From: Bacillus marasmi
GTDB taxonomy: Bacteria; Bacillota; Bacilli; Bacillales; Cytobacillaceae
Length of the DNA stretch: 64,000 nt
Assembly: GCF_902168435.1 (NCBI RefSeq)
Contig: NZ_LR656177.1
Coordinates: 1 to 64,000, forward strand
Direction: 5' to 3'
The position numbers were made by a program, and so were the translations under genes. The notes below the pieces were generated by a model, which was not told the origin of the DNA, did no database searches, and worked only from the letters and a program-made list of their open reading frames with translations. The number at the start of each line of letters is the position of its first letter. Within the stretch, counting starts at the first letter, position 1. Shown piece by piece: positions 125 through 57,165 of this stretch.

Positions 125-510
125 ACACGCTACGTGCCCAAAAGAAGCCCCAAAACTGAAAAACGGTCACGTAGACAAGCTATACGTGCCCAAACGAGGC
201 CTTCAACCTGAAAAACGGTCACGTAGCCTGGCGCTACGTGCCCAAAAGAAGCCCCAAAACTGAAAAACGGTCACATAGACAAGCTATACGTGCCCAAATG
301 AGGCCTTCAACCCGAAGAACGGTCACGTAGCCAGGCGCTACGTGCCCAAAAGAAGCCCCAAAACCGAAAAACGGTCACATAGACAAGCTATACGTGCCCA
401 AATGAGGCCTTCAACCTGAAAAACGGTCACATAGCCAGCCTCTATGAACCCAAACGAGGCTTCAAACCCAAAAAAAGGCAGTATAGCCAGTCGCTATGTG
501 CCCAAAAGGG
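125..510. repeat. Tandem array of 52-bp hairpin units (family A, copy 1)
   Basis: About eight units recur every 52 bp; the GTGCCC core falls at 134, 186, 238, 290, 342 and 394, with degenerate units near 446 and 498. Each unit carries GGTCACGTAG and CTACGTGCCC, which can fold into a short-loop hairpin. Some units carry CACATAG with CTATG, which keeps the stem. The same family forms the array at 22655-23335. It lies downstream of yutG; the gene on its left is outside the window. Confidence 0.9.
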
Positions 511-556
511 AATGCAAAGCAAAAAAATGGGCATTTAATCGGGGCAAATCACTAAC

Positions 557-590
557 AAAGAGGTCAGACCCCAAAGTCTGACCTCTTTTG
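557..590. terminator. Rho-independent terminator downstream of yutG
   Basis: AAAGAGGTCAGAC and GTCTGACCTCTTT form a 13-bp perfect stem with a 7-nt loop (CCCCAAA). A-run and T-run flank it, so it can work on both strands; yutG on the minus strand ends just beside it. Confidence 0.85.
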
Positions 591-598
591 CGTTCTAA

Positions 599-1102
599 TT
601 AGTCTACATTCGCAGCTCGATGGGCGAGTCTGCTTGAGGCCGCTGCGGCAATCGCACCGACTAAATCGTCTAAAAATGTATGGCATTCTCCAGTGGATTT
701 ATCGTTAAGCTTTTGAAGTATCCCTGGTTTTTGCTTATCTATAAAACCGTAATTGGTAAAGCCGATTGAGCCGTAAACATTTACGATTGAAAAAGCAAGG
801 ATTTCATCAACACCATATAGACCTTCATCAGTCTCAATAAGCTGCTGAAGTGGGCTGTCTAACAGCTTTTTCTCAGCGAGAACATCGAGCTGAATCCCCG
901 TTAATATAGCATTTTGAACCTCGCGCTTTGCAAGTACCCTTTCGACGTTATGAAGACAATCCTTCATGTCTAAGTTTGGGTGGTATTTTTCTTGGAGGTA
1001 ATAGACTAATTTTGCAATATCTTCTAATTCAACTCCTCTTTCATTCAACATTTTGAGAGCAGTTTTATCTGACATTTTTACGATTTTGATTTCTTCCTCC
1101 AT
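599..1102 (-). CDS. yutG: YutG, phosphatidylglycerophosphatase A-like protein
   Basis: The 167-residue product matches the YutG/PgpA-like family. The C-terminal HTFLDDLVGAIAAAA stretch resembles the conserved acidic patch of PgpA-type phosphatases. No clear membrane anchor is seen, so it is probably soluble or peripheral. The ATG is preceded by AAAGGTGAG at good spacing. It is divergent from yutH, the B. subtilis neighbour order. The family assignment is firm, but the true substrate of YutG is not settled, because B. subtilis has a different main phosphatidylglycerophosphate phosphatase. Confidence 0.85.
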   Translation of the reverse strand: MEEEIKIVKMSDKTALKMLNERGVELEDIAKLVYYLQEKYHPNLDMKDCLHNVERVLAKREVQNAILTGIQLDVLAEKKLLDSPLQQLIETDEGLYGVDEILAFSIVNVYGSIGFTNYGFIDKQKPGILQKLNDKSTGECHTFLDDLVGAIAAAASSRLAHRAANVD

Positions 1103-1134
1103 GTGCTCACCTTTTCTATTTATTTTTCTCTATC

Positions 1135-1288
1135 CAGCTTCAGCACCAAGCGTATAGTGTACTTCGCCAGTCTTCACCGCAACGATTGCGTCAACATCGA
1201 ATCGCATGCGCTCTTCGTGTTTCCTTTATCTCAGTCGAAGTGCTCCAGCCCACCAAACATCGCTAAACAGGCGCTTCCGCTTTTAATA
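1135..1288. repeat. Degenerate dispersed element ending in GCGCTTCCGCTTTT
   Basis: In the yutG-yutH divergent gap (1103-1456) a stretch begins CCAGCTTCAGCACC and ends GGCGCTTCCGCTTTTA. This matches the two ends of the 121-bp elements at 13484-13852. The interior is diverged. The rest of the gap is AT-rich with no gene that I can support. Confidence 0.6.
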
Positions 1289-1456
1289 ATATATATACTC
1301 CGTTTTTTGAAAATATGCTCCTATAATACATGCTTCATCTTCATGTTTTCCTATAAAAATTTGCTTATTCATTACTAATGATAAGTTACAAACAAGTTTT
1401 TGGCAAAAAATTCATATATGTATATAAGGGAAAAGCCATGAGGAGGGGATTCTAAA

Positions 1457-2473
1457 ATGATACAGGAATGGCTTGAACATCACTATGGAATCAAGGCTGA
1501 GGAAGAGATTTCAATTGGACATTACTCTGGATGTAAACGAGGTGACCAGCTTTACTTTCTTATACATCCGGTTAAACAAGAACAAGAAGTAATTAATGAA
1601 TTAAATGCAATTTCTGCACATTTAGTAACGACTGGCGATCGGAATGTGCCGATTTTTTATCCAGCTAAAAACGGAGAAATATTGAGTCAATGGAAGGATG
1701 AAAAAGCTTGTGTATTAGCCTTGAATGGTGGAATGAAGCGCCGGTCATATGCACAGTTAGGTCGTAAATTGGCAAAGTTCCATCAACGAGGTTTGACTTT
1801 GACAGTGCCGATTGAGAAGCTGAGCAGATTGGGTCAATGGAAGGATATTTGGGTAAAACGTTTAGAACAAATGGAAAAGGTCTGGCTTTCGATGATTTAT
1901 CAATATCCAGAAAATGAATTTGAGCGATTGTTTTTAGAATCGTTTCCATATTATTGTGGTTTAGCTGAAAATGCGATTCAGTATTTAGTCGATACAGAGT
2001 TGGATGAGGCACCAACAAGCATTGATCATGGTACCGTCGCTCATGAACGATTTTCTGAAGGAACATGGGGAGAGGCGTCGCTATTTAAAAATCCGTTTGA
2101 TTGGATACTCGATCACTTATCGCGAGATATAGCCGAGTGGACAAGGGAGCGTTATTTTCATAACAGCCAAACGTATCAGCCTGAATTAAGGCAATTCTTT
2201 TCTGAGTATCAAAGTAAAACGAGACTCTCGCCATTTTCTTGGCGATTATTATATGCACGCCTCTTGTTTCCGCTTCATTATTTTGAATGTGTCGAGGAGT
2301 ATTATGTATCAAATTCTGAGCAGACTAAACATACGCTAGACGATAGACTGCAAAAAATTCTAAATCATTCTAGCGAGTACGAACAATTTTTGGCCAGCTT
2401 TTATGGGTTGGTCGAAGTCCCAATTCGTACCATGAAAATTCCTGAAATTGATTGGTTGAAGGGGATTTATTAA
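1457..2473 (+). CDS. yutH: YutH, CotS-family spore coat kinase-like protein
   Basis: The 338-residue protein matches YutH, a spore coat-associated member of the CotS/aminoglycoside phosphotransferase-like fold. The bilobed-kinase pattern is weak: an SIDHGTVAHER segment near residue 190 stands where a catalytic loop HxD would be, and FDWILDHLSRDIAEW follows. Whether it has kinase activity cannot be judged. GAGGAGGGG precedes the ATG. It stands alone between yutG (divergent) and a dehydrogenase gene. By homology it is expected to be made in the mother cell, but I see no convincing sporulation promoter. Confidence 0.85.
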   Translation: MIQEWLEHHYGIKAEEEISIGHYSGCKRGDQLYFLIHPVKQEQEVINELNAISAHLVTTGDRNVPIFYPAKNGEILSQWKDEKACVLALNGGMKRRSYAQLGRKLAKFHQRGLTLTVPIEKLSRLGQWKDIWVKRLEQMEKVWLSMIYQYPENEFERLFLESFPYYCGLAENAIQYLVDTELDEAPTSIDHGTVAHERFSEGTWGEASLFKNPFDWILDHLSRDIAEWTRERYFHNSQTYQPELRQFFSEYQSKTRLSPFSWRLLYARLLFPLHYFECVEEYYVSNSEQTKHTLDDRLQKILNHSSEYEQFLASFYGLVEVPIRTMKIPEIDWLKGIY

Positions 2474-2558
2474 TGAATGAACCGTATTGCTTTCATGGAA
2501 ACCTTCTCTTGTAGTATATTAAAATAGTAAACATGATATACGGGAAATGAGGTAGACG

Positions 2559-3548
2559 ATGAAACCTTACATTTTTATTACAAGAAAACTCCCTGAGAAT
2601 GTTATTTCAAAATTGGATAATCGCTATACGATTAGTATGTGGGATAAGGAAGATGTGCCTGTGCCACGACAGCGATTATTGGATGAAGCGCAAAAGGCGG
2701 ACGCGCTTTTGACGATGCTTTCTGATTCAATTGATGAGGAAGTAATTAAGGCTGGTTCAAACCTTAAGGTTATTGCTAATCTTGCTGTTGGATTTGATAA
2801 TATCGACCTTGCAGCGGCAACGGAGCATGGTATTGCAGTTTGTAATACTCCAGATGTATTGACAGATACAACTGCTGATCTAACCTTTGGACTATTGATG
2901 GCAACAGCTAGACGTCTAGTTGAAGCGGCTGAGTTTGTCAAAGAAGGTAAGTGGCAAAGCTGGAGTCCATTACTGCTAGCTGGACATGATATCCACCACA
3001 AAACGATTGGTATCGTAGGTATGGGGAAAATTGGTGAAACAGTTGCTAAACGCGCTACCGGCTTTGATATGGAGATTTTGTACCACAACCGGACTCGGAA
3101 GCCTGAAGTGGAAGAGGCAATCGGGGCGCAATATGTTTCATTTGATGAGCTAGTTAAAAGATCCGACTTTATTGTTTGTTTAACGCCACTGACACATGAA
3201 ACACGCAATTTGTTTACGGCTGATGTGTTTGCGAGTATGAAACGTTCAGCTATCTTTATTAATGCCTCACGTGGTCCAGTCGTTGACGAGGAAGCATTAC
3301 TTGCTGCTTTAAAAAATAATACGATTGCCGGTGCTGGCTTAGATGTATTCACGATTGAACCAATTTCAGCAGATCATCCACTGTTAACATTACCAAATGT
3401 AGTGGCGCTTCCGCATATCGGTAGCTCAAGTGTTGAAACAAGAGAAACGATGATGGAATTGTGTCTAGAGAACATTGACAAGGTATTAACAGGAAATGAC
3501 CCAATAACAGTGGTTAACAAAGATTGGAAATTACAATTGTCTCATTAA
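2559..3548 (+). CDS. D-2-hydroxyacid dehydrogenase (glyoxylate/hydroxypyruvate reductase-like)
   Basis: The 329 residues have the full D-isomer-specific 2-hydroxyacid dehydrogenase layout. The Rossmann motif GIVGMGKIGE lies near residue 150, the catalytic Arg in NASRGPVVDE near 237, the Glu in FTIEP near 265 and the catalytic His in LPHIGSSS at about 286. It is closest in appearance to glycerate dehydrogenase/glyoxylate reductase proteins. The exact substrate (glyoxylate, hydroxypyruvate or another 2-keto acid) is inferred from family only. AATGAGGTAG precedes the ATG. A strong terminator follows directly, so the gene is probably transcribed alone. Confidence 0.85.
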   Translation: MKPYIFITRKLPENVISKLDNRYTISMWDKEDVPVPRQRLLDEAQKADALLTMLSDSIDEEVIKAGSNLKVIANLAVGFDNIDLAAATEHGIAVCNTPDVLTDTTADLTFGLLMATARRLVEAAEFVKEGKWQSWSPLLLAGHDIHHKTIGIVGMGKIGETVAKRATGFDMEILYHNRTRKPEVEEAIGAQYVSFDELVKRSDFIVCLTPLTHETRNLFTADVFASMKRSAIFINASRGPVVDEEALLAALKNNTIAGAGLDVFTIEPISADHPLLTLPNVVALPHIGSSSVETRETMMELCLENIDKVLTGNDPITVVNKDWKLQLSH

Positions 3549-3555
3549 AAAATCT

Positions 3556-3592
3556 AAACCTGTGAACAAAAACTGCTCACAGGTTTTTTTAC
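3556..3592 (+). terminator. Terminator of the hydroxyacid dehydrogenase gene
   Basis: AAACCTGTGA and TCACAGGTTT pair around an 11-nt loop and are followed by a run of T. Confidence 0.9.
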
Positions 3593-3834
3593 ATCCAGCT
3601 GCAGGTGCCATCGGCTCGAGGTCACAAGCTTGTCTAGCTACAGCGGCTAGGAGCACGAGTCATAAGCCAAATCACTCCAAAGACTAACGTCTTTTGCGTG
3701 ATTCGTCTTATGCCTACCGCTCCTGGTCAAGCCGCTTCCGCTTTTCGAACAATCCGCCCAGAAGGTAAGGTGCAACCTTCTGGGCGGCTCGTCTTGTGCT
3801 TGTCGCCGATAGGCAGGCACCTTCCGCTTTTTTT
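3592..3834. repeat. 121-bp-type dispersed element interrupted by a second copy
   Basis: The outer copy runs 3592-3630 and resumes at 3746-3834. Its halves join as GGTCACAAGC plus CAATCCGCCCAGAAGG, the same continuity seen in the intact copies at 13484-13852. Between them (3631-3745) sits a complete second copy, starting TGTCTAGCTACAGCGGC and ending GCCGCTTCCGCTTTT. Each copy has outer arms that pair plus an inner hairpin such as CCCAGAAGG with CCTTCTGGG. Confidence 0.85.
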
Positions 3835-3845
3835 TACATAATGAA

Positions 3846-3875
3846 TTGTTGGTTAATTCAAAATTTATTTATAAT
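3846..3875 (+). promoter_or_regulatory. Candidate sigma-A promoter of hom-thrC-thrB
   Basis: TTGTTG at 3846-3851 and TATAAT at 3870-3875 are separated by 18 bp. This would start transcription near 3882 and leave a leader of about 120 nt before hom. No T-box or leader-peptide signature was recognised in that leader. Confidence 0.6.
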
Positions 3876-4001
3876 GAAAGCGGTTAATATGGAAAAAGGG
3901 GCAAAAAACTATTGTAAAATCTGAAAACTAGAAATATAATGTCTTTTATATGAATACAATTGTTCATTTAGAAAGAACATGTGGGCGGGGGGACTTAAGG
4001 A

Positions 4002-5303
4002 ATGAAAGCAATTTCGATTGGCATGTTAGGTCTAGGTACGGTTGGTTCCGGTGTCGTAACGATTATTGAGAACCATCAAGATAAATTGATGCATCAGGTA
4101 GGTTGTCCTATTAAAATAAAGAAAATCCTCGTTAATAATATTAATAAACCAAGAGCGGTTGAAATTCCACAAGAGCTTTTAACAACGAACGCTAACGAGA
4201 TTTTAGAGGATCCAGAAATAGATGTTGTGATCGAAGTAATGGGTGGAGTCGACCATACAAAAGGATATTTATTGAAGGCTCTTCAACAAAAAAAGCATGT
4301 TGTAACAGCAAATAAAGATTTAATGGCCGTATATGGAACTGAACTACATACTGTAGCTGCAGAGAACGGCTGTGATTTATTTTATGAAGCGAGCGTTGCC
4401 GGTGGTATCCCAATTCTCCGTAGTTTAGTAGATGGTTTAGCATCTGATCGTATTTTGAAAATGATGGGAATTGTTAACGGTACAACAAACTTCATTTTAA
4501 CAAAAATGACGAAGCAAGGGGCAGCATATGCTGAAGTGCTAAAAGAAGCTCAGGAACTAGGGTTTGCAGAAGCTGATCCAACTTCTGATGTTGGAGGCTT
4601 AGACGCAGCTAGAAAAATGACTATTTTAGCGACACTAGGCTTTTCGATGAAGGTTGACCTCGACGATGTAAAGGTTCAAGGGATTACGCAAATCACGGAA
4701 GATGATTTAAAATATGCTAAACAATTAGGCTATACAATGAAGTTACTCGGCATTGCGAGTCGTGACGAAGATGATAAAGTGGAAGTGAGCGTTCAGCCAA
4801 CACTTTTACCGGAAAATCATCCACTAGCATCCGTAAATGACGAATATAATGCAGTTTACGTATTCGGTGATGCTGTTGGAGAAACTATGTTTTATGGTCC
4901 TGGTGCAGGAAGTTTACCGACTGCAACATCGGTTGTGTCTGACCTCGTTGGCGTAATTAAGAACATGCGCCTTGGTGTCAATGGTCGCAGCGCAGTTACA
5001 CCACAGTATCCTAAGAAATTGAAGAGCGCAGATGAAATTTTCTCAAAATACTTCTTGCGTCTTCATGTGTATGATGAAGTAGGTACATTTGCGGATATTA
5101 CTGGAATATTCTCAAAACATAAGGTAAGCTTTGAGAAGATACTGCAAATGCCTTTAAAACGAAAAGAAACAGCAGAAATTGTCTTGGTTACGCATCACGC
5201 AAGCTTAAAAGACTATGAAGAGATACTAAATGAATTAAAGGATTTACCAGCAGTCAAAGAAATTAAATGTTCATATCGTGTGGAAAGAGGCGAAAGAGGA
5301 TGA
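4002..5303 (+). CDS. hom: Homoserine dehydrogenase
   Basis: This cytoplasmic enzyme reduces aspartate semialdehyde to homoserine, the branch point to threonine and methionine. The 433 residues have an N-terminal nucleotide motif [12 protein letters not shown], the catalytic region with [10 protein letters not shown] near residue 160 and [17 protein letters not shown] near 190. A C-terminal ACT domain starts at about residue 350 ([15 protein letters not shown]), the usual site of threonine feedback. GGGCGGGGGGA precedes the ATG. It is the first gene of the threonine operon; its stop codon overlaps the thrC start as ATGA. Confidence 0.97.
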
Positions 5304-6361
5304 GATGGAAAGGTCTTATTGAAGAGTACAAGGAATTTTTACCAGTTACGGAAAACACTCCATTATTAACTTTAAACGAGGGGAATACACCGCTCATTAA
5401 ATTGGAGAAAATTTCCGAAGAATTGGGGATTAACCTTTATGTGAAAACAGAAGGTGCTAACCCAACTGGCTCGTTCAAAGACCGTGGTATGGTGTTTGCC
5501 GTAGCAAAAGCAAAAGAAGACGGCGCAGACACAGTTATTTGTGCATCAACAGGAAATACTTCTGCAGCAGCAGCAGCTTATGCAACAAGAGCAGGAATGA
5601 AGTGTATCGTTGTTATTCCTGAAGGTAAAATTGCTCTTGGTAAGCTAGCTCAAGCCGTTATGTATGGTGCAGAAATTGTATCAATCGAAGGAAACTTTGA
5701 CCAAGCGTTGGCAATGGTTCGCAAAATCAGCGAAACAGAACCGGTTGCGCTTGTTAACTCGGTCAATCCATATCGCTTAGAAGGCCAAAAAACAGGTGCA
5801 TTTGAAGTATGTGACCAATTAGGTCAAGCACCGGATATTTTGGCAATTCCAGTTGGTAACGCTGGAAATATCAGCGCCTATTGGAAAGGCTTTAAAGAAT
5901 ATAACGAGAAAAAAGGTCATAACCTACCAAAAATGTTTGGGTTTGAAGCTGCTGGTGCAGCGGCGATTGTTCACAATCGTGTTTTCGAAAACCCTGAAAC
6001 AATCGCAACAGCTATCCGTATCGGTAACCCTGCAAGCTGGGATTTAGCAGTAAACGCTGCGAAAGAATCAAACGGTCTAATTGATGAAGTAACTGACGAA
6101 GAAATCCTAACAGCATACCGTGCAATCGCTTCTAAAGAAGGCGTATTTGCAGAGCCAGGCTCAGCAGCATCTATCGCAGGTGTATTTAAAAAGGTTCAAA
6201 GTGGCGAGATTCCAAAGGGATCAACTGTTGTAGCAATATTGACTGGTAACGGCTTAAAGGATCCAGATACAGCGATCTCTGCAAGCCCAATCAAGCCGGT
6301 TTCACTTCCTAACGATGAAAAAGCTGTAGCGGAGTATATTAAGGGAGTTGTCCATCAATGA
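5300..6361 (+). CDS. thrC: Threonine synthase
   Basis: This PLP enzyme converts O-phosphohomoserine to threonine. The start chosen is the ATG at 5300, which overlaps the hom stop and gives 353 residues beginning [10 protein letters not shown], the usual length in Bacillus. An upstream in-frame ATG at 5267 lies inside hom and is less likely. The PLP lysine is Lys60 in [10 protein letters not shown]. The phosphate-binding glycine-rich loop is [13 protein letters not shown] near residue 193. AAAGAGG precedes the start. The gene ends in an ATGA overlap with thrB, consistent with translational coupling. Confidence 0.97.
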
Positions 6362-7278: not shown

Positions 7279-7291
7279 TTTCAGCATAATA

Positions 7292-8075: not shown

Positions 8076-8612
8076 GGTGTTGGACAAATTCAAACTCGGA
8101 ATGAGTTTACCTGGCGGAGGAAAAATGGTTCTAGGTAAATTCAAACCCCAAATAAATTTACCTGGCGGAAGAAAAATGGTTCTAGGTAAATTCAAACTCA
8201 AAATGAATTTACCTGGCGGAAGAAAAATGGTTCTAGGTAAATTCAAACTCAAAATGAATTTACCTGGGCCATGAAAAATGGTTCTAGGTAAATTCAAACT
8301 CAAAATGAATTTACCTGGCGGGAGAAAAATGGTTCTAGGTAAATTCAAACTCAAAATGAATTTACCTGGGCCATGAAAAATGGTTCTAGGTAAATTCAAA
8401 CTCAAAATGAATTTACCTGGCGGAAGAAAAATGGTTCTAGGTAAATTCAAACTCAAAATGAATTTACCTGGGCCATGAAAAATGGTTCTTGGTAAATTCA
8501 AACTCAAAATGAATTTACCTGGCGGGAGAAAAATGGTTCTAGGTAAACTCAAACTCAAAATGAGTTTACCTGACGGAGGAAAAATGGTTCTAGGTAAATT
8601 CAAACTCTCTTT
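8076..8612. repeat. Tandem array of 51-bp hairpin units (family D)
   Basis: Ten units recur at exactly 51 bp (GGTTCTAGG at 8127, 8178, 8229 and so on to 8586), with one diverged unit before them. Each contains AGGTAAATTCA and TGAATTTACCT, a perfect 11-bp stem with a 9-nt loop. The linker alternates between GGCGGAAGAAAAAT and GGGCCATGAAAAAT types, giving a partial 102-bp higher-order repeat. It lies between convergent yuzD and yutJ. Because 51 is a multiple of three, long open frames run through both strands by default; these are not taken as genes. Confidence 0.95.
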
Positions 8613-13468: not shown

Positions 13469-13483
13469 GTTTTCGCTTTTCAT

Positions 13484-13852
13484 TGTCTAGCTGCAGCGGC
13501 TAGGGGCTCGGGGTCACAAGCCAATCAGTCCAGAAGGTCAAAGAACGACCTTCTAGCCTGCTCGTCTTGTGCCTGTCGCCCCTGACCAAGCCGCTTCCGC
13601 TTTTCATTGTCTAGCTGCAGCGGCTAGGGGCTCGGGGTCTTAAGCCAATCCGTCCAAAAGGTTAAAGAACAACCTTTCGGCCGGCTCGTCTTGTGCTTGT
13701 CGCCGATAAGCGGGCGCCTTCCGCTTTTCATTGTCTAGCTGCAGCGGCTAGCCCCTCGAGGTCTTAAGCCAATCCGTCCAAAAGGTTAAAGAACAACCTT
13801 TCGGCCGGCTCGTCTTAAGCTTGTCGGGGCTGACCAAGCCGCTTCCGCTTTT
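13484..13852. repeat. Three tandem copies of a 121-bp structured dispersed element
   Basis: Copies at 13484-13604, 13608-13728 and 13732-13852 recur every 124 bp, joined by CAT. Each starts TGTCTAGCTGCAGCGGCTAG and ends CTTCCGCTTTT. The outer arms pair (AGCGGCTAGGGGC against GCCCCTGACCAAGCCGCT) and an inner hairpin forms (CAGAAGGTC with GACCTTCT in copy 1). In the first copy the arms read as complements of each other. The element recurs at 3592-3834, shortened at 45105-45171 and degenerate at 1135-1288. Confidence 0.92.
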
Positions 13853-13965
13853 CTCAGAAAAGTGAAAAAGTAGTCGAAAAATCGTCGCGAAAAAGCACGA
13901 ATGGATTGACTACCTCTGCTAAGTTGAGTACACTTTTAAATGAAGTGTTAGGGGGAGGGAGCTTG

Positions 13966-19784: not shown

Positions 19785-20290
19785 GGTCCAATGGAACAAA
19801 ACACCGCTCAAAAACCATCGAAGTGTCCCATAGAGAGGCTCTATGGAACAAAAACCAGCTAAAAAACCACCGAAGTGTCTCATAGAGAGGTCCAATGGAA
19901 CAAAAGTCGGCTAAAAAACCCCTGAAGTGTCTCATAGAGAGGTCCAATGGAACAAAAGTCGGCTAAAAAACCCCTGAAGTGTCTCATAGAGAGGTCCAAT
20001 GGAACAAAAGTCGGCTTAAAAACCATCGAAGTGTCCCATAGAGAGGTCCAATGGAACAAAAGTCGGCTAAAAAACCCCTGAAGTGTCTCATAGAGAGGTC
20101 CAATGGAACAAAAGTCAGCTAAAAAACCCCTGAAGTGTCTCATAGAGAGGTCCTATGGGACAAAACACGGCTTAAAAACCATCAAAGTGTCTCATAGAGA
20201 GGTCCAATGGAACAAAAGTCGGCTTAAAAACCATCAAAGTGTCTCATAGAGAGGTCCAATGGAACAAAAGTCGGCTTAAAATGATCTTCA
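19785..20290. repeat. Tandem array of 52-bp hairpin units (family B)
   Basis: Ten units recur at exactly 52 bp (GGTCCAATGGAACA-type core at 19785, 19837, 19889 and so on to 20253). Hairpin arms are seen best as CCATAGAG with CTCTATGG in the 19837 unit and as TCATAG with CTATG at 20149; other units have lost pairs. The array lies between convergent kapD and kapB. An open frame on the minus strand is an artefact of the repeat. Confidence 0.93.
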
Positions 20291-22654: not shown

Positions 22655-23335
22655 CGTAAACGAGCTCTATGTGCCCGAACTGAAGCTTCAAACCAAAAAA
22701 CGGTCACGTAAACGAGCTCTATGTGCCCAAACCGAAGCTTCAAAGCAAAAAACGGTACGTAAACGAGCTCTATGTGCCCAAACTGATGCACCAAACACAA
22801 AAACGGTCACATAGACGAGCTCTACGTGCCCGAACCGAAGCTTCAAACACCAAAATGGTCACGTAAACGAACTCTACGTGCCCAAAGCGAAGCACCAAAT
22901 CAAAAAATGGTCACATAAACGAGCTCTATGTGCCCAAACTGATGCACCAAACACAAAAACGGTCACATAGACGAGCACTACGTGCCCAAAGCGAAGCACC
23001 AAACACCAAAATGGTCACATAAACGAGCTCTACGTGCCCAAACCGAAGCTTCAAACACCAAAATGGTCACGTAAACGAACTCTACGTGCCCAAAGCGAAG
23101 CACCAAACATCAAAACGGTCACATAGACGAGCTCTACGTGCCCAAAGCGAAGCACCAAACACCAAAATGGTCACATAAACGAGCTCTACGTGCCCAAACC
23201 GAAGCTTCAAACACCAAAATGGTCACGTAAACGAACTCTACGTGCCCAAAGCGAAGCACCAAACATCAAAACGGTCACATAGACGAGCTCTACGTGCCCA
23301 AACTGAAGCTTCAAACCAAAAAACGGGAACATAAA
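22655..23335. repeat. Tandem array of 52-bp hairpin units (family A, copy 2)
   Basis: Thirteen units recur every 52 bp (GTGCCC at 22671 to 23294; one is 51 bp). Arms GGTCACGTA and TACGTGCCC fold around a short loop carrying ACGAGCTC. Three units at about 22982-23137 are repeated exactly at 23138-23293, a 156-bp duplication, so expansion of the array was recent. Same family as 125-510. The array lies between convergent yojM and patB, directly followed by family C. Confidence 0.94.
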
Positions 23336-23690
23336 GAATTGCATGAACGCCCCATGAGTTCAAAACTCCACAAAAATTGACAAGCAGTGAACTCATGAGC
23401 GCCCCATGAGTTCATAACACCATCAAAAATGACAAGAAGTGAACGCATGAGAGCCCCATGAGTTCATAACACCATCAAAAATGACAAGAAGTGAACGCAT
23501 GAGAGCCCCATGAGTTCATAACACTATCAAAAATGACAAGAAGTGAACGCATGAGCACTTCATGAGTTCAATCCTCAATCAAAAATGACAAGAAGTAAAC
23601 GCATGAGCACCCCATGAGTTCAAAACTCCATCAAAATTATAAAGAAATGAACGCATGAGCCGCTGCACTATGAGTTCACTAATCCGCATA
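23336..23690. repeat. Tandem array of 52-bp hairpin units (family C)
   Basis: Seven units recur at 52 bp (CCCCATGAGTTCA at 23350, 23402, 23454, 23506 and diverged copies after). TGAACGCATG and CATGAGTTCA match at 9 of 10 positions as hairpin arms with a loop of about 7 nt. It abuts family A in the same yojM/patB convergent gap yet shares no sequence with it. Confidence 0.92.
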
Positions 23691-27729: not shown

Positions 27730-27925
27730 TTTGAAAATAAGCGGAGGAATTCCGGTTATTTTGGAGAAAACCTAATTTTATTAGTAAATAAGGGAAGTAT
27801 TTCCGCTTATTTCAATAAAATCATGGGATTTAGGCTGTTTTTGAGCAATTAAGCGGAAAATCTCCACTTATTTTTGCTATAAAATATACAATATGAAAAT
27901 TAAGCGGAAATTCTACTCCTATTCC
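27730..27925. repeat. Short array of 51-60-bp hairpin units (family E, copy 1)
   Basis: Four diverged units carry AATAAGCGGA followed by TCCGCTTATT (starts near 27736, 27787, 27847 and 27899). The arms fold to an 8-10-bp hairpin. The same family recurs at 56960-57165. It lies between convergent alaT and the XRE gene, in a 468-bp gap that also holds the two terminators listed. Confidence 0.78.
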
Positions 27926-34618: not shown

Positions 34619-34749
34619 CAATCCACCTCAATTACTGCAATCTATTTTTCAGTATGACCTAAAATAGAAAGCTAAATCAGAAATAATAGATAATTCTTTA
34701 CAGTGTTTCTTATTAGGGCTATGATTATTTTGTGATAAGAAAATATGTT

Positions 34750-34846
34750 ACTACTAGGGGTGCCCGGATAGGGCTGAGACGAAAACGAATGCTGTTTTTA
34801 AACCCTTTGGACCTGATCTGGATGATACCAGCGTAGGAAAGTAGTG
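34750..34846 (+). ncRNA. TPP riboswitch (thi-box) aptamer
   Basis: The conserved blocks GGGGTGCCC, GGCTGAGA, ACCCTTTGGACCTGATCTGG and ATACCAGCGTAGGAAAGTAG are in order. P1 is closed by ACTAC (34750) with GTAGT (34845). It controls thiM-thiD-thiE by binding thiamine pyrophosphate. Confidence 0.97.
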
Positions 34847-34877
34847 TGAAATATTACTAGATGATTTTCACTTACTC

Positions 34878-50960: not shown

Positions 50961-50968
50961 CCAAAACC

Positions 50969-51000: not shown

Positions 51001-51005
51001 TAGTG

Positions 51006-51044
51006 CTTTAGTGAGGTGGGGGCCTGTCCCCCACCTCACTAAAG
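51006..51044. repeat. REP-like palindrome, copy 3
   Basis: CTTTAGTGAGGTGGGGG and CCCCCACCTCACTAAAG are perfect complements around CCTGT. Here the flanking arms are TTTAGTGAGG instead of TTAACGCA, so the core is conserved while the arms vary. Confidence 0.9.
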
Positions 51045-51058
51045 CGATAAAGTGGATA

Positions 51059-52522
51059 TTATTTTTGGACTTCGTTTGGTACAGATAGCTCTAGTCCCTC
51101 GGCGATGCGTTTGCCATATTCAGGATCTGCTTTATAGAAATGTCCGATTTGGCGAAGCTTGATTTCATCCTTTTCCACAGGCTTCATCGCAGCAACAATA
51201 TTGTCGACGAGGCGAGTACGCTCCTCTACACTCAGCAAGCGATACAAATCACCCGCTTGTGTATAGTGATCATGATGGTCATAGCTTACATTTTCGGCAA
51301 TACCCGTCACAGGATATGCCGCCTGTTTATTTTCCGGTGAGTCAACTGGGCCGCCATAGCTATTTGGCTCATAGTTGACTTTGCCGCCACCATTGCCATC
51401 AAAGCGCGATTGGCCGTCACGCTGATAATTGTTAACCTCAACCTTCGGACGATTAATTGGTAAATGATTATGCTGAACACCAACACGGTAGCGATGTGCA
51501 TCTGCATAAGCGAACAAGCGACCTTGCAGCATTTTATCAGGTGAAACATCAACTCCAGGGACTAATGTTCCAGGCGAGAACGTAGCCTGTTCAACTTCCG
51601 CAAAGTAGTTTTCATGATTGCGATTTAACACCATCCGGCCAACTTCAATTAATGGATAATCCTTTTGTGACCAAACTTTCGTTACATCGAAAGGATCGAA
51701 GCGGTACGTGTTTGCATCCTCTAACGGCATAATTTGTACGAACAGCTTCCACGCAGGGTAATTGCCATCCTCAATTGCGTTAAATAAATCTTCAATATGA
51801 TAATCCGGATTCTCACCAGCAATTTTTGCTGCAACATCAGGAGCTAAGTTTTTCACGCCTTGCTCTGTTTTAAAATGGTACTTAATCCACACACCGTCGC
51901 CATCCTCATTCGTCCATTTGAACGTATGGCTCCCATAGCCATTCATGTGGCGTAATGTGGCCGGAATACCACGGTCTGACATGAGAATGGTCACCTGGTG
52001 CAATGCTTCTGGGGAAAGTGACCAGAAATCCCACACTGCATTAGGATCCTTTAAATGAGTTTGTGGATTTCGTTTTTGTGTATGGATAAAATCTGGGAAC
52101 TTTATTGCATCGCGGATAAAGAATACAGGCGTATTGTTTCCAACGATATCGTAGTTTCCATCCTCTGTATAAAACTTGATCGCAAAACCACGTGGATCAC
52201 GAACAGTATCAGAAGAACCAAGCTCTCCGGCTACTGTAGAAAAGCGTGCGAACAGAGGTGTTCGCTTGCCAACTCCATTAAAAACCTTTGCTTTTGTATA
52301 TTTACTTACATCATTCGTTACTTCAAAATATCCGTGTGCTCCTGCTCCTTTAGCGTGAACAACACGTTCTGGAACACGTTCACGATTAAAATGAGCCAAT
52401 TTTTCTAATAGATGTACATCCTGCAATAAAGTAGGACCTCTGTGACCAGCGGTCATCGAGTTTTGATTATCACCAACGGGAGCACCCCAGCTAGTTGTTA
52501 ATTTTTGTTCATTGTTTGCCAA
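51059..52522 (-). CDS. katA: Vegetative catalase
   Basis: The 487-residue haem catalase removes hydrogen peroxide. The active-site His is in [16 protein letters not shown], the Asn follows in [14 protein letters not shown], and the haem-ligand Tyr is in [17 protein letters not shown] at 52522 was chosen as start, with GAGGTGA upstream; the GTG at 52531 lies inside that site. A perfect PerR box and a promoter lie upstream, as in B. subtilis katA. The gene is convergent with the BASS gene. Confidence 0.96.
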
Positions 52523-52558
52523 TTGGATCACCTCGAAGAATATTTTTGCTACTCCTAA

Positions 52559-52586
52559 ATGATAACAGATTTCAATTAAAAATCAA
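52559..52586 (-). promoter_or_regulatory. Candidate sigma-A promoter of katA
   Basis: TTGATT (52581-52586) and TATCAT (52559-52564) on the minus strand are 16 bp apart, just downstream of the PerR box. Confidence 0.6.
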
Positions 52587-52593
52587 TACTAAA

Positions 52594-52608
52594 TTATAAT
52601 AATTATAA
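52594..52608. promoter_or_regulatory. PerR box of katA
   Basis: TTATAATAATTATAA matches the 15-bp PerR consensus TTATAATNATTATAA at every position and lies eight bases upstream of the katA -35. Confidence 0.85.
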
Positions 52609-52646
52609 TCTAGAAAAAATAACCACATTAAAATGTGGTCATACCT

Positions 52647-52697
52647 TTAACGCAGTAAAGCGATGGGGGACAGTCCCCCATCGCTTTACTGCGTTAA
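52647..52697. repeat. REP-like palindrome, copy 4
   Basis: TTAACGCAGTAAAGCGATGG and its complement close a 51-nt palindrome around GGGGGACAGTCCCCC, perfect but for the central base. It lies between the TauE gene and katA. Confidence 0.92.
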
Positions 52698-52723
52698 TTT
52701 GATATATTGATTTGGAGTGAAAT

Positions 52724-53605
52724 TTAGGCTTTTTCGTATTGTGTTTTTTGTTTTTTGAGATTTAGGGCAACGAAGATGATGCCGATGATCCAGAGGCCAA
52801 TTAGTACGCTATAAATGACAACTGTTGCATTGGAAGGGAGGCTAAAGGTCAATAAAAGCGTTCTCACATTAGTGAGAATGATCATTCCACCGACTAAGAC
52901 TCCGAGTAGGTGCGAAGGAATAATTTTTACGAGCCAGGCTGCAATCGGCGCAGCAATTATTCCGCCAATCATCAACGCAAACACCCAGACAAAGTTTATT
53001 TCACTCCAGCCGAGTGAAATAAAAAACCCAAGCGAAGAACATACGGCGATTGCAAATTCACTAGTATCCACGGAACCAATAACTTTCCTCGTTTCGATAT
53101 TTTTTTTCGATAAAAGAACGGGTGTTGCAATTGGACCCCAGCCACCTCCACCAGTCGCATCGAAAAAGCCAGCTATAAACCCAAGTGGAATAAAAAATCG
53201 TTTGTTAATATTTTTTTGATTTTGCTCAAGGACAACTTTCCTGTTAAACAAAAATCTATAAATGACAAAGACCCCTAATCCTAATAAAAAGACTGAAACA
53301 TATGGCTTGATGATATGTCCTGGAATACTCCCTAAGAAAAGAGCACCTAAGAAAGCACCAATTGACCCAGGAAGGATTAATTTTTTCACGATGCCTTTGT
53401 CAACATTGCCAAAACGAATATGTGACACTCCTGATGCAGCCGTCGTAACCACCTCTGCTAAGTGAACGGATGCCGAAGCTGCGGCTGGAGCAATCCCGAA
53501 CATTAATAGTAGCGATGTGGAGGTGACTCCATACGCCATACCAAGTGAACCATCAACTAACTGCGCACATAGCCCGATGATTGCAAGAACAATTAGCCTC
53601 TTCAA
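52724..53605 (-). CDS. TauE/SafE-family sulfite exporter-like protein
   Basis: The 293-residue protein has about eight membrane segments and the TauE/SafE pattern: QLVDGSLGMAYGVTSTSLLL at the N terminus and ATGGGGWGPIATPVLLSK near residue 150. It exports small anions, possibly sulfite, sulfate or organosulfonate. TTG at 53605 was chosen as start with AAAGGGG upstream; the TTG at 53614 touches that site. The direction is the same as katA. Confidence 0.85.
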   Translation of the reverse strand: MKRLIVLAIIGLCAQLVDGSLGMAYGVTSTSLLLMFGIAPAAASASVHLAEVVTTAASGVSHIRFGNVDKGIVKKLILPGSIGAFLGALFLGSIPGHIIKPYVSVFLLGLGVFVIYRFLFNRKVVLEQNQKNINKRFFIPLGFIAGFFDATGGGGWGPIATPVLLSKKNIETRKVIGSVDTSEFAIAVCSSLGFFISLGWSEINFVWVFALMIGGIIAAPIAAWLVKIIPSHLLGVLVGGMIILTNVRTLLLTFSLPSNATVVIYSVLIGLWIIGIIFVALNLKKQKTQYEKA

Positions 53606-53948
53606 ACAAAACAACCCCTTTGACGTTCAGCCTTCTTCCGAATCTCCAATACCCAATTCTTTATTCAGTGAATAAGGATGACATGTTGTAGTGATAAAGC
53701 TTTTAACTAGGCATTTTTACCCCATGATATGAAACTGTTCAAAGTCAGGTCACTTGTTTATTTGAAATTGGGCATTTGAAAAAAGGTTTAAACCTAATCA
53801 ACAATTGAATTTTCGCCCTTCAACATTAGTTTAAAAAATTCCAAATATTCAGCAAATAAGTTATAATGACAATGGTGTTGTTCTTAATAAAGAACCGCAA
53901 CCTCTATTAAAAACTACTATCCTAAAGCCTTAACGAAAGGAGATTACG
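53606..53948. other. Intergenic gap between TauE and the next gene
   Basis: A palindrome CTTTATTCA-G-TGAATAAGG at 53659-53677 lies about 55 bp upstream of the TauE start and could be an operator of unknown identity. TATAAT at 53872 may serve the gene at 53949. No gene is seen. Confidence 0.5.
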
Positions 53949-54266
53949 ATGATTTATCTGTTTTATTACCTCTCTCTATTAAATTTGATCGATGGCGTAA
54001 TCACCTTTTTCGGTCTGGAGTATTCGATTATCGGGGAAATGAACCCCATTATGAATCAGCTTTATCAGCTACATCCGTTTCTGTTTATTACGGCAAAAAT
54101 CACCCTATCACTTTTGCTATATTTATTTATCTATTTCAAGCAAGTGCCTAGCAGCAATGCAGCGAGAACGGTCACCTATGTTGCTTCAGGGCTATATACG
54201 GTTGTTTTTTTTCTCCATAGCTTTTGGGTCATTGAGTACATTAATATTTATAACCTGACACAATAA
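53949..54266 (+). CDS. Small membrane protein, DUF5658-like
   Basis: The 105-residue protein has three to four membrane segments and the pattern LIDGVITFFGLEY...EMNPIMNQL, which fits the DUF5658 family. Function unknown. AACGAAAGGAGA precedes the ATG. A hairpin terminator shared with the convergent glycosyltransferase gene follows at 54269-54296. Confidence 0.65.
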   Translation: MIYLFYYLSLLNLIDGVITFFGLEYSIIGEMNPIMNQLYQLHPFLFITAKITLSLLLYLFIYFKQVPSSNAARTVTYVASGLYTVVFFLHSFWVIEYINIYNLTQ

Positions 54267-54298
54267 AAAGCCGGATGATTGAATCATCTGGCTTAGGT
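54267..54298. terminator. Terminator between the DUF5658-like gene and the glycosyltransferase
   Basis: AAGCCGGATGATT and AATCATCTGGCTT pair around GA; it can serve both convergent genes. Confidence 0.75.
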
Positions 54299-54320
54299 AA
54301 GCTAAGTAAAGTTCATTTTA

Positions 54321-55478
54321 TCAAGCAAATATTTTCTCAGCAGGGGGCATATCAACGATTTCAGAATATTGACTAATCAATGTATCAAAAATATCATCCC
54401 ATTTTTGGGTAAGTGCATAATTGCGAGCTTCGAGCCCCATTTCGTTTCTCAAATTACGATGGGTGAGAAGCTGAACAATTGCCCTTGTAAAATCCTCCAC
54501 ATTTCCAGGTTCACATAAAGTTCCTGTAATCCCCGGATTAATAATATTTTTGACACCGCCCGCGTTGGCACCGACCACTGGAGTTCCGCAGGCTAGGGCT
54601 TCAAGAACGACATTTCCGAAGGTCTCAGTTGGAGATGGAAATATAAATAAATCTGATACACTGTATGCCTCTGCCAAACTATCACCTTTTAAATAACCTG
54701 TAAAAATCATATTGGATGCTGCTTCTTTTTGAAGCTCATCGCGCAAAGGGCCATCGCCTATAATCAACCATTGCAAATGCTGATTAAGATCGTACGGAAG
54801 CGATTTGGCGACAGCCATCAGCGTCTTTAAATCCTTTTCAGGAGCTAATCTGCCAACAAAGGTTAGTAGGTATTTTTTGTTAATTCCAAGCTTACTCCGG
54901 ACAATTTTACGATTGTAATATGGATGAAAAGCTTGACAATCAACACCATGAGGCCATTTTTCTAGATTCGAAAAGCCATGTCGATTTAATTGGTTGAAAG
55001 TTACAGCAGAAGGGACAAATATTTTCCGAAACGGTCGATGGAACCACTTCATGTACTTCCATAAATATTTTGAAAGGAATTGAAGGTCATAAAATTGCAG
55101 GTAGTAATCGAAGTCCGTGTGATAGGATCCGACAAGAGGAATGTTTAATTTATTTCCAAAATAAACACCGCAAAGGCCAACATTAAAGGGTGTTGCAACA
55201 TGAATGATATCGGGGGCAAAGTCCTCCAACTCCGCTTTTATTCGCATAACATTTGGTAATGCTAAGCGGCATTCGGGATACAGGAAAAATGATAGACTTT
55301 TTAGACGGTGAATTTGACTTGAAATGTATTCTTTTCCTTCCGACTTATCAAAGCCTTCTGGAGCAAAAACCTTGTAAGTAATTCCGCGTGAATCTAAATA
55401 ATCTGTATAGCGCTTCAGAGTATTGGCTACTCCATTGATGTCAGGATAAAAGGTATCTGTGAAAAATGCGATTTTCAT
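54321..55478 (-). CDS. GT4-family glycosyltransferase
   Basis: The 385-residue protein is a GT-B fold glycosyltransferase (MKIAFFTDTFYPDINGVANT at the N terminus, GSYHTDFDYYLQFY, then the GT4 nucleotide-sugar block FPSPTETFGNVVLEALACGTPVV near residue 285). It resembles alpha-glucosyl/mannosyl diacylglycerol transferases acting on lipid anchors. The acceptor is unknown. CTAGGAGGCG precedes the ATG. It is 27 bp downstream of the PAP2 gene, so both are likely one transcript. Confidence 0.83.
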   Translation of the reverse strand: MKIAFFTDTFYPDINGVANTLKRYTDYLDSRGITYKVFAPEGFDKSEGKEYISSQIHRLKSLSFFLYPECRLALPNVMRIKAELEDFAPDIIHVATPFNVGLCGVYFGNKLNIPLVGSYHTDFDYYLQFYDLQFLSKYLWKYMKWFHRPFRKIFVPSAVTFNQLNRHGFSNLEKWPHGVDCQAFHPYYNRKIVRSKLGINKKYLLTFVGRLAPEKDLKTLMAVAKSLPYDLNQHLQWLIIGDGPLRDELQKEAASNMIFTGYLKGDSLAEAYSVSDLFIFPSPTETFGNVVLEALACGTPVVGANAGGVKNIINPGITGTLCEPGNVEDFTRAIVQLLTHRNLRNEMGLEARNYALTQKWDDIFDTLISQYSEIVDMPPAEKIFA

Positions 55479-55505
55479 TCCATCGCCTCCTAGTTCTAAA
55501 ATTAG

Positions 55506-56051
55506 CTAAAAACTCATAAAAATGCTGTTCACAAAGTAAAAGCAAACAGTGCCAATCGATGAACCTAAAACGACACCCGCAATGACATCAGTTGGGTAAT
55601 GGAGTCCCAAATACATTCTGGAAATTCCAACACAAATTCCTAAAGGAATCAGCCCAAAAGCGAGCATAGGTGCATATAAAACAAATGGGGTAATCACAGA
55701 AAAGATTGCTGTCGTATGCCCAGAAGGAAACGAATGATCCTGTAACGGATTAGCAGGAATTCTAATCATATCTAGCTTCTTATATGGTCTTTGACGCGGA
55801 TAGAGTTTTTTAACAAAATGAACTGGTACGTGGCTTAAAGCCAATGTAAGAGTACTTGCTAAACCAACCCACTTTAATGTAATGGGGAGAATGAAGAGTA
55901 GGAGCAAAGTTACAGTGATTGTAACAGTTGCACCACCGAGATGAGTAATATTGCGAAAAAAACCATTCAAAAGCCTTTTATCAAAATGGCGATTAACCTC
56001 TCTAAAAACCTTACACTCAAACTGATGGATCGAAAAAAGCAGTCTGCTCAT
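55506..56051 (-). CDS. PAP2-family membrane phosphatase
   Basis: The 181-residue protein is a PAP2/PgpB-type lipid phosphatase. Its three signature blocks are KKLYPRQRPYKK near residue 85, PSGHTTAIFSV near residue 110 and SRMYLGLHYPTDVIAGVV near residue 145, with about five membrane segments. It may dephosphorylate undecaprenyl diphosphate or lipid phosphates. CGGAGGATTG precedes the ATG. It opens the operon with the glycosyltransferase. Confidence 0.87.
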   Translation of the reverse strand: MSRLLFSIHQFECKVFREVNRHFDKRLLNGFFRNITHLGGATVTITVTLLLLFILPITLKWVGLASTLTLALSHVPVHFVKKLYPRQRPYKKLDMIRIPANPLQDHSFPSGHTTAIFSVITPFVLYAPMLAFGLIPLGICVGISRMYLGLHYPTDVIAGVVLGSSIGTVCFYFVNSIFMSF

Positions 56052-56257
56052 GTAACAATCCTCCGAAAAAATTATTTGTTGCTACTCTTCTTATTGTAAA
56101 AAGGAAATATTTAGGCAATATAAGAGGAATGTAAAATTTTCGAAAAAGTATTTTGAATATGTGAAGTTTTCTCGCAAACTAATGATGAATGGAGTATAGT
56201 TAGTGAGTATGTATTAGTACAGAGTAATAACAGTGAAATCTGGTGGTGAACAGGAAC

Positions 56258-56881
56258 GTGATTAGAACGAAAATTCCAACCTATGAACGAATTGCGATTG
56301 ATCTAGCAAATCGTATTTATGATGGGAAGTTTAAGGAAGGAGAAAAGATTCATGGACGCTCAACCTTGGCCAGTGAATATAAGGTTTCTCCTGAAACAGT
56401 TAGAAGGGCAATCAAAATTTTAGAAGATGTTGAAATTGTCCAATCGACAAAGGGCAGTGGTATCATTATTTCCTCCCGTGAAAATGCTTTTAAATATATT
56501 AATCGTTTCTCAAGTCTTGAGAGTATTAATGAACTAGAGAAGCAAATGAATGCACTCATAACAGAGCGTGAAAAGCTAGATGAACAAATGTTTGAAACGC
56601 TGCGGAAAATTACCGATTACTCGGTTAAGCTACGCCACACAAATCCGCTTGCGCCACTAGAGGTTGAAGTAAAATCAACCTGTATTCATATTGGCAAAAC
56701 GATTTCTGAGCTGATGTTTTGGCAAAATACAGGTGGAACGGTCGTTGGAATTAAGCGTAAGGGTGAGTTAATCATATCACCAGGACCATATGCGTTGATT
56801 TTAGAAGGAGATATTCTCCTTGTCATCGGCAATGAGCTGGCTTACGACCGCGTCCTACATTTCATGAATGACAAGGATTAA
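56258..56881 (+). CDS. BusR-like GntR regulator with RCK_C domain
   Basis: The 207-residue protein has a GntR winged helix (residues 1-70; TYERIAIDLANRIYDGKF, VSPETVRRAIKILEDVEIVQ), a central coiled coil (about 75-125) and a C-terminal RCK_C/TrkA-C domain (IGKTISELMFWQNTGGTVVG, then GPYALILEGDILLVIG). This architecture is that of BusR of lactic acid bacteria, a c-di-AMP-dependent repressor of osmolyte transport. GTG at 56258 was chosen, with GGTGGTGA upstream; GTG codons at 56243 and 56246 lie in that site. It faces a betaine/EgtU-type transporter operon. Confidence 0.8.
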   Translation: MIRTKIPTYERIAIDLANRIYDGKFKEGEKIHGRSTLASEYKVSPETVRRAIKILEDVEIVQSTKGSGIIISSRENAFKYINRFSSLESINELEKQMNALITEREKLDEQMFETLRKITDYSVKLRHTNPLAPLEVEVKSTCIHIGKTISELMFWQNTGGTVVGIKRKGELIISPGPYALILEGDILLVIGNELAYDRVLHFMNDKD

Positions 56882-56959
56882 AAAGAAGCTGGGACAGAAC
56901 CAAATGATTTTTATGTAGTACTATATTAGAGATCAGTGTTGATTTTCAAGTAGGTATGA

Positions 56960-57165
56960 GAATCTAAATAAGAGTAGAATTTCCCCTTATTGTCTGTAAG
57001 GGGGGCTAAATGAGCTGAAATAAGAGTAGATTTTCCGCTTAACGACTCCCCAAAAGACAAAATTAATTGATTTTTATGAAATAAGCGGAAAAACTCCCGT
57101 TATTATAAGGGAAATATGGGTCTTTTCCAAAATAAGCGTAATTCTTCCGCTTATTTTCAAACACA
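56960..57165. repeat. Short array of 51-61-bp hairpin units (family E, copy 2)
   Basis: Four diverged units carry AATAAGNGGA... with TCC(G)CTTATT (near 56967, 57018, 57079 and 57130). The last is AATAAGCG with CGCTTATT, a perfect 8-bp stem. It lies between the convergent BusR-like gene and the transporter operon. Confidence 0.75.

What the first reader, a model, noticed from the sequence alone, without database searches (positions are those of the whole stretch)
125..57165. Seven arrays in five unrelated families with one hairpin per 51-52 bp, at convergent gene junctions
Seen in sequence: arrays at 125-510, 8076-8612, 19785-20290, 22655-23335, 23336-23690, 27730-27925 and 56960-57165. Five families share no obvious sequence, yet most have a period of 51 or 52 bp and one 8-11-bp hairpin per unit (family E is more irregular, with two intervals near 60 bp). 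All six arrays whose two flanking genes are visible lie between convergent genes (yuzD/yutJ, kapD/kapB, yojM/patB twice, alaT/XRE, BusR-like/ABC). Other convergent gaps lack them. Inference: 52 bp is about five helical turns, so hairpins would lie on one face of the DNA. E. coli BIMEs are a known analogue. They may absorb supercoils or block transcription readthrough. I know of no description of this class, but could not search.
Basis: partly seen in the sequence, partly recalled or inferred. Interest (0 to 1): 0.75.

Follow-up and report, generated by a model that had tools for sequence, protein, structure and literature searches.

The report
Evenly spaced palindrome arrays in Bacillus
Many gaps between genes in this Bacillus relative hold short palindromes repeated almost exactly every 52 base pairs (about five turns of DNA), mostly pointing the way the chromosome is copied, which suggests an undescribed, spacing-sensitive DNA element whose job is unknown.

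Summary
The arrays are real and genome-wide. In 796 kb of the host genome outside the window, 22 of 24 tandem arrays with 25-110-bp units have periods of 51-53 bp; the other two lie in called ORFs. The period recurs in unrelated sequences across Bacillaceae. Most units carry a palindrome; in the main superfamily covariation supports it.

Family E is not an array but a dispersed element of four palindromes spaced about 51/61/51 bp.

The convergent rule fails outside the window: arrays lie in 6 of 77 convergent, 14 of 277 co-directional and 1 of 104 divergent gaps.

New: polarity. The A-rich strand matches the leading strand for 48 of 60 orientable superfamily-I arrays and 16 of 17 loci in a complete genome, switching at dnaA. 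Another family in another genome does not show it (13 of 20).

Spacings near 5 or 6 helical turns in two unrelated families favour a protein-bound double-stranded platform. No protein or function was tested. Ten literature searches found no description.

The parts
128..508 (+). Superfamily I array, 7.3 copies of 52 bp (GGTCACATAG-N7-CTACGTGCCC-AAA type); A-rich strand is +
8086..8607 (+). Family B array, 10.2 copies of 51 bp; 11-bp arms with 9-nt loop, 20-bp spacer; between DUF1462 (yuzD-like) and Pyr_redox_2 (yutJ-like) genes
19785..20281 (+). Superfamily I array, 9.6 copies of 52 bp (TGTCTCATAG-N7-CAATGGAACA-AAA type); between RNase_T (kapD-like) and kapB genes
22657..23335 (+). Superfamily I array, 13.1 copies of 52 bp (GGTCACATAG type); absent from the same junction in G004 (Bacillus sp. 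DNRA2)
23341..23660 (+). Superfamily I array, 6.2 copies of 52 bp (TGAACTCATG-N7-CATGAGTTCA type); present at the same junction in G004
27730..27925 (-). Dispersed four-palindrome element (family E); palindrome centres near 27748, 27798, 27859, 27910
56960..57165 (+). Dispersed four-palindrome element (family E); palindrome centres near 56978, 57030, 57092, 57142

Best explanation
These are chromosomal 'phased palindrome' elements of Bacillaceae: head-to-tail arrays of about 2.5-22 units with a period held at 51-53 bp, plus a dispersed element of four palindromes at about 51/61/51 bp. My best account is that they work as double-stranded DNA. A symmetric, self-associating DNA-binding protein (unknown) would sit on the palindromes, and spacing near whole helical turns would keep successive sites on one face so that the bound proteins form one oriented nucleoprotein block. 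The block would lie just past gene 3' ends, outside promoters, where converging or terminating transcription builds positive supercoils, and its polarity would be set relative to the replication fork, so that it acts as a one-way boundary (topological insulator or polar roadblock). SHOWN by computation: the period, the palindromes and their covariation, the fixed loop and spacer lengths, alternation of about 5 and 6 turns, 3'-side placement, polarity of superfamily I. INFERRED: protein binding, helical phasing as the reason for the period, and the boundary function.
For: Period: 22 of 24 arrays at 51-53 bp in 796 kb; 16 of 20 arrays in 80 named loci at 51-53 or 104 bp; 11 sequence clusters share it; the one array of >=2.3 copies in 393 kb from 20 further genomes also has 52 bp. 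Covariation in superfamily I: 85.6% of stem cells paired against 69.5% in shuffles and at most 45.2% when slid; 39 double-change cells against 15.9, 0 of 500 shuffles. No RNA signature: G-T pairs 127, A-C 193 on the A-rich strand; hairpin energies equal on the two strands (39 arrays). Helical steps: in G057 loops of 7 and 18 nt alternate at six loci, giving starts 52 and 63 bp apart with a constant 25-bp spacer; the E element keeps 51.3/61.4/51.1 bp (sd 0.9/0.6/1.0) in 17 copies. Unit length is protected: 8.5 substitutions per indel in 45 arrays (22 without five arrays of >6 indels) against 4.0 in orthologous intergenic DNA. Polarity: 48 of 60 arrays without a duplicate row, 21 of 24 in convergent gaps where neighbours cannot set it; 16 of 17 loci in complete genome G039, switching at dnaA. 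Placement.
Against: No protein is known or tested, and stem sequences differ between arrays of one genome, which fits structure recognition as well as it fits a protein. One family with the same period has no significant short-loop palindrome. Loops of 9, 15 and 20 nt also occur, which are not whole turns. Phased A-tracts are weak in superfamily I and not general (which stopped part-way). Polarity fails for the 51-bp family III in G001 (13 of 20) and is not significant in '--' gaps (12 of 16). Several same-genus or same-family genomes show few or no superfamily I matches. Avoidance of divergent gaps is borderline (p=0.058).
Confidence: 0.4

Rival explanations
1. Selfish or neutral satellites. 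Units form hairpins in lagging-strand template DNA and arrays grow and spread by replication-coupled slippage or ectopic copying; 3'-side placement only reflects where insertions are harmless; the period is a by-product of the copying mechanism.
For: 167 of 169 superfamily I profile hits in 860 kb lie in arrays, so there are hardly any solo units. Arrays turn over: array A is missing from G004 while its neighbour D is present. The yutJ-side junction holds different sequences in window, L078/L100 and L093, and by eye a 2-3-unit degenerate one in L041, while L042, L043 and L044 lack one. Polarity is expected for a replication-coupled process.
Against: Slippage gives no reason for the same 51-53 bp in 11 sequence clusters or for 51/61/51 in an element that is not a tandem array. 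Indels are 2-5 times rarer relative to substitutions than in nearby intergenic DNA. Hairpin energy does not differ between strands.
Confidence: 0.3
2. Polar trains of weak intrinsic terminators. Read against the fork, each unit is a hairpin followed by a T-rich stretch, so the array would stop head-on or antisense transcription by many weak stops in a row.
For: Best terminator score inside arrays is higher read head-on than co-directionally (medians -11.3 and -41.4; above zero in 14 and 7 of 45 arrays).
Against: Most units stay below the usual cut-off (1 of 39 arrays above zero on the complement strand). Head-on genes ending at arrays do not lack their own terminator (9 of 15). No wobble-pair preference for that strand that would mark selection on RNA beyond chance. 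The score formula was recalled, not taken from a call.
Confidence: 0.15
3. REP/BIME-like elements moved by a Y1 (RAYT or IS200/IS605-type) transposase.
For: Imperfect palindromes, 3'-side placement and replication polarity resemble that class; the host genome encodes two PF01797 proteins.
Against: Both host Y1 genes are flanked by other palindromes (GGGGGACTGTCCCCC; GGTGCCTGTCACC type), seen by eye. PF01797 is also in genomes without superfamily I matches at E<=1e-4, such as G001 and G002. Hardly any solo units. No GTAG or CGTC tag outside the stem was seen.
Confidence: 0.07
4. Transcribed 3'-UTR RNA arrays that stabilise or regulate messages.
For: Arrays lie beyond gene 3' ends.
Against: No excess of G-T over A-C pairs on the A-rich strand (127 against 193); no Rfam match at gathering score except a TPP riboswitch elsewhere; about half of the facing gene ends have their own terminator before the array.
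Confidence: 0.05

Closest known systems
REP / BIME (GTAG- and CGTC-tagged palindromic repeats)
   Same: Short intergenic palindromes, mostly between convergent or same-direction genes and near 3' ends; large clusters can contain tandem repeats (passages of PMC3733652).
   Different: Here strictly head-to-tail with fixed 51-53 bp period; [quoted passage not shown] No tag, no solo units, no RAYT partner.
bcr repeats of the Bacillus cereus group
   Same: Intergenic repeats of a related group that can fold.
   Different: bcr1 is listed as a dispersed element of about 147-167 bp, not as a 52-bp array (table passage of PMC2267715); no sequence comparison was made here.
Replication-fork and centromere-like tandem operator arrays (for example EBNA1 family of repeats, recalled)
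   Same: Tandem palindromic sites at regular helical spacing; a working analogy only.
   Different: Single functional loci with a known protein; here dozens of dispersed arrays without a known protein. Recalled, no call.
CRISPR / TIGR arrays (recalled)
   Same: Regular unit length.
   Different: No variable spacers: units including spacers are on average 78-96% identical to the array consensus.

Membership tests
REP/BIME | Short intergenic palindromes near gene 3' ends | tested here: met
   20 of 21 array-bearing gaps are convergent or co-directional; co-directional arrays are closer to the upstream 3' end in 12 of 14
REP/BIME | Dispersed single copies or dimers | tested here: not met
   167 of 169 superfamily I hits lie in arrays
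REP/BIME | Cognate RAYT gene flanked by the repeats | tested here: not met
   The two host Y1 genes are flanked by other palindromes (by eye)
REP/BIME | Gyrase, IHF or Pol I binding | not testable with these tools
   No binding data
Intrinsic terminators | Stable hairpin followed by a U tract, score above cut-off | tested here: not met
   Mean unit score above zero in 0 (lead) and 1 (complement) of 39 arrays
Structured RNA | Covariation with G-U preference on one strand | tested here: not met
   Covariation yes; G-T preference no
Phage- or plasmid-borne repeats | Similar DNA in phage or plasmid records | tested here: not met
   One array (window 22657-23335) searched; no match in 50,697 phage or 72,556 plasmid records
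Helically phased protein-binding array | Spacing at whole helical turns, variants in whole-turn steps | tested here: inconclusive
   52/63 in G057 and 51/61/51 in E fit; loops of 9, 15 and 20 nt do not clearly fit
Helically phased protein-binding array | A cognate DNA-binding protein | not tested
   No candidate sought by co-occurrence

The most novel reading that the evidence does not exclude
Bacillaceae chromosomes carry a distinct class of replication-polar boundary elements: sequence-diverse palindromes held at about five (or six) helical turns, bound by an unknown oligomerising protein family, which mark or insulate gene 3' ends in a direction-dependent way. What is conserved is geometry and polarity, not sequence.
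Probability: 0.3. Interest if true: 0.85.

Novelty: new variant of a known kind. Interest (0 to 1): 0.7.

Why it matters
A repeat class whose spacing and direction are conserved while its sequence is not is invisible to ordinary homology searches. If the geometry reflects a bound protein, it would reveal an unknown chromosome-organising or conflict-limiting factor in a large bacterial family. Even if the arrays are selfish, the constant unit length in unrelated sequences needs a molecular ruler that is not yet known. Arrays are also practical: contigs of this assembly end in them.

Tried and rejected
Phased A-tracts as the general cause of the period: harmonic 5 is the largest only narrowly in superfamily I (0.219 against 0.19 for harmonic 1), and other families show no consistent signal; the script stopped with an error before the last families. 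Y1 transposase as the mover. Strand-specific RNA or DNA hairpin stability as the cause of polarity: no difference. Arrays as substitutes for missing terminators: not borne out. Convergent enrichment: p=0.40. Polarity in a second family and genome: family III in G001 gave 13 of 20, not significant. Phages and plasmids: no match with one array. Rfam: only a TPP riboswitch in the window. tRNA genes: none. Literature: ten searches gave no description; of the papers only passages of PMC3733652, PMC2267715 and PMC13155455 were read, the rest as search listings. One search failed (import error) and was rerun; one search failed half-way and its second half was rerun. One stretch did not exist. A note says 18 of 20 E clusters have four palindromes; the right count from the list is 17 of 20, and one search gives 17 of 19.
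Full report
WHAT WAS ASKED. The window is contig C41:1-64000 of a 4,638,330-base assembly in 46 contigs. The nearest same-genus genome found, G004, has the contig length of Bacillus sp. DNRA2 (524,820 bases), so I take them to be the same record.

THE ARRAYS ARE THERE. Tandem Repeats Finder reports the five tandem arrays at nearly the stated coordinates with periods 51 or 52. To see whether the window is special I took 796 kb of the same genome outside it: contig C19 whole, C23 1-260,000 and C13 1-180,000. These contigs were chosen because they held family A matches but were taken as continuous blocks. Of 24 arrays with units of 25-110 bp and at least 2.3 copies, 22 have periods 51 (2), 52 (16) or 53 (4). 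The other two (39 and 48 bp) lie in called ORFs; one of the 22 overlaps a weak ORF call and another overlaps the start of a neighbouring gene call. The 22 arrays cover 11,606 bp. Self-match counts in noncoding DNA of this sample plus the window show 8822, 1302 and 1352 positions at lags 52, 51 and 53; the median lag has 1.

IT IS NOT ONE SPECIES. A YutJ scan of genome contigs gave 80 loci of named Bacillaceae-like records (1.58 Mb). Fourteen of the 80 loci hold 16 arrays with period 51-53 or 104; 4 further arrays of at least 2.3 copies have 36 or 60 bp. Named hosts include Mesobacillus, Robertmurraya, Fredinandcohnia, Cytobacillus, Metabacillus and several Bacillus. In 20 stretches (393 kb) from 20 other relatives, 17 of them from other families of the order, the only array of at least 2.3 copies has 52 bp. 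Some arrays are in single-contig genomes (G001, G039), so they are not assembly artefacts.

FAMILIES. Single linkage can chain and some small clusters may be distant relatives, so 11 is an upper figure for independent origins.

ANATOMY OF SUPERFAMILY I. Forty arrays with 380 units were scanned. A unit is a 10-bp arm, a 7-nt loop, a 10-bp arm and a 25-bp spacer. Near-invariant across arrays are G2 (0.97) and its partner C26 (0.98), and A29, A41, A50 (0.87, 0.92, 0.92), while the rest of the arms varies. On 27 units from 27 arrays 85.6% of stem cells are standard pairs, against 69.5% in column shuffles and 25.6-45.2% when the partner is slid; 39 double-change cells against 15.9 expected, none of 500 shuffles reaching it. 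Eleven of the 38 units first aligned were left out because MAFFT opened a gap in them. Hairpin energies do not differ between strands (18 arrays one way, 17 the other, of 39), and G-T pairs do not exceed A-C pairs (127 against 193), so RNA-level selection is not indicated. In superfamily I units Watson-Crick pairing is weak at stem position 3 (0.48) and strong at positions 1-2, 6 and 8.

SPACING. The sum stays at 51-53 although its parts differ: 10+7+10+25, 11+7+11+24, 10+9+10+22, 11+9+11+20, 12+13+12+16. In G057, a genome of another family of the order, units have a 115-bp super-period: loops of 7 and 18 nt alternate at six loci (one 19-nt loop), the spacer is always near 25 bp, and starts are 52 and 63 bp apart; the 18-nt loops differ strongly in sequence between loci. 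One of the other two clusters lies inside a family II array and is a false hit. The pattern used is loose (57 hits in shuffled sequence of four blocks), but the four-fold clusters are not chance. Four more such elements with 50-52/60.5-61/51-52 bp are in L052, L072, L207 and L229. Copies of E share descent, so they are not independent, but E and superfamily I are unrelated in sequence, and both show a step of about one helical turn. Against this, loops of 9, 15 and 20 nt also occur, and a helical A-tract signal is weak and not general. Indels inside arrays are rarer relative to substitutions than in orthologous intergenic DNA: 2015 substitutions and 236 indels in 45 arrays, 1586 and 72 after leaving out five arrays with more than six indels, against 922 and 233 in 21 gaps between host and G004. 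Because the arrays were found by their regular period, this test is biased towards few indels.

PLACEMENT. With a home-made gene caller, arrays lie in 6 of 77 convergent, 14 of 277 co-directional and 1 of 104 divergent gaps of at least 60 bp in the 796 kb (convergent against co-directional p=0.40, both against divergent p=0.058). In co-directional gaps arrays are nearer the upstream 3' end in 12 of 14. Gene ends facing arrays have an intrinsic-terminator score above zero in 15 of 31 (co-directional with the fork) and 9 of 15 (head-on), much as gene ends elsewhere (24 of 60 sampled convergent, 156 of 270 co-directional; divergent control 4 of 122).

POLARITY. Superfamily I units can be oriented. 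Of 91 array rows in all fetched DNA, 30 were dropped (orientation unclear or GC skew below 0.03); of the 61 left, 49 have the A-rich strand on the leading strand as judged by local GC skew (p=2e-6), and 22 of 25 in convergent gaps. One array appears twice; without it 48 of 60 and 21 of 24. Many of these stretches were chosen because they hold superfamily I matches, which does not favour either strand. In the single-contig genome G039, dnaA lies at 4,461,496 and 67 model hits form 17 loci; 16 of 17 follow the leading strand, with the switch at dnaA and between 1.77 and 2.81 Mb, where the antipode (2.11 Mb) lies (p=2.7e-4). The exception is 24 kb from dnaA. E elements agree in 15 of 19, or 14 of 18 without the false cluster (p=0.03). 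Family III in G001 does not agree: 13 of 20, one of them the query itself. So polarity is established for superfamily I, suggested for E, and not shown for III.

TURNOVER. At the yojM/patB junction G004 has the D array but not the A array; at the kapD/kapB junction it has a diverged superfamily I array. No 51-53-bp array was found in 100-kb regions of G001 and G002 around the window's counterpart, though G001 has family III arrays elsewhere. The model of superfamily I matches 11 of 61 relatives at E<=1e-4. At the yutJ junction arrays were found in 3 of 80 loci (L078, L093, L100) with sequences unlike the window's, plus a 2-3-unit degenerate one seen by eye in L041. In G006, another genus, a 2.2-copy array lies at about the place of the window's first E element, inferred from coordinates.

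HOW IT MAY WORK. The facts to explain are constant spacing with free sequence, palindromy, polarity and 3'-side placement. A protein-bound double-stranded array with sites on one helical face explains spacing, palindromy and whole-turn variants; polarity and placement suggest a one-way boundary near places where transcription ends. Slippage-driven selfish repeats explain arrays without solo units, turnover and polarity, but not the common period or element E. Weak polar terminators explain polarity only. I put 0.4 on the phased-platform account, with the protein and the function inferred.

NOVELTY. Palindromic intergenic repeats are a known kind (REP/BIME; passages of PMC3733652). The fixed period across unrelated sequences, strict head-to-tail order, the four-palindrome element and the polarity were not found described in ten searches of an open-access library that lacks most subscription journals.

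Noticed in passing
window 13474-13853; also C19 33075-33456 and C23 196335-196709: Another intergenic tandem repeat with 124-126-bp units (CTAGCTGCAGCG type), about three copies each; not studied.
   Followed up: no
L180 (G000:C27:254130) and L181 (G000:C4:4555): Two Y1 (PF01797) genes flanked by their own palindromic repeats (GGGGGACTGTCCCCC and GGTGCCTGTCACC...CGAATTTTGTCGAA types), probably RAYT-REP pairs in Bacillaceae.
   Followed up: partly
L041-L120 record titles: Records titled Chryseobacterium sp. ISL-80, Pseudomonas sp. ISL-84 and Paenibacillus sp. FSL R5-0490 hold a YutJ 75-76% identical to the window's and may be mislabelled.
   Followed up: no
window 1; G000:C27:1, C21:1, C22 end, C32 end: Several contigs begin or end in or near these arrays, so they probably break short-read assemblies.
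   Followed up: no
window 8101-8274 and 19880-20143: Arrays produce spurious open reading frames that simple gene callers accept.
   Followed up: no
window 34746-34856: TPP riboswitch upstream of the genes from 35022 on.
   Followed up: no
L198 4353-4615 and L209 18733-19300: A related array type with 15-nt loops but the same 52-bp period.
   Followed up: no
L181, about 8.4 kb downstream of the Y1 gene: A 108-bp tandem repeat of 4.6 copies, not examined.
   Followed up: no
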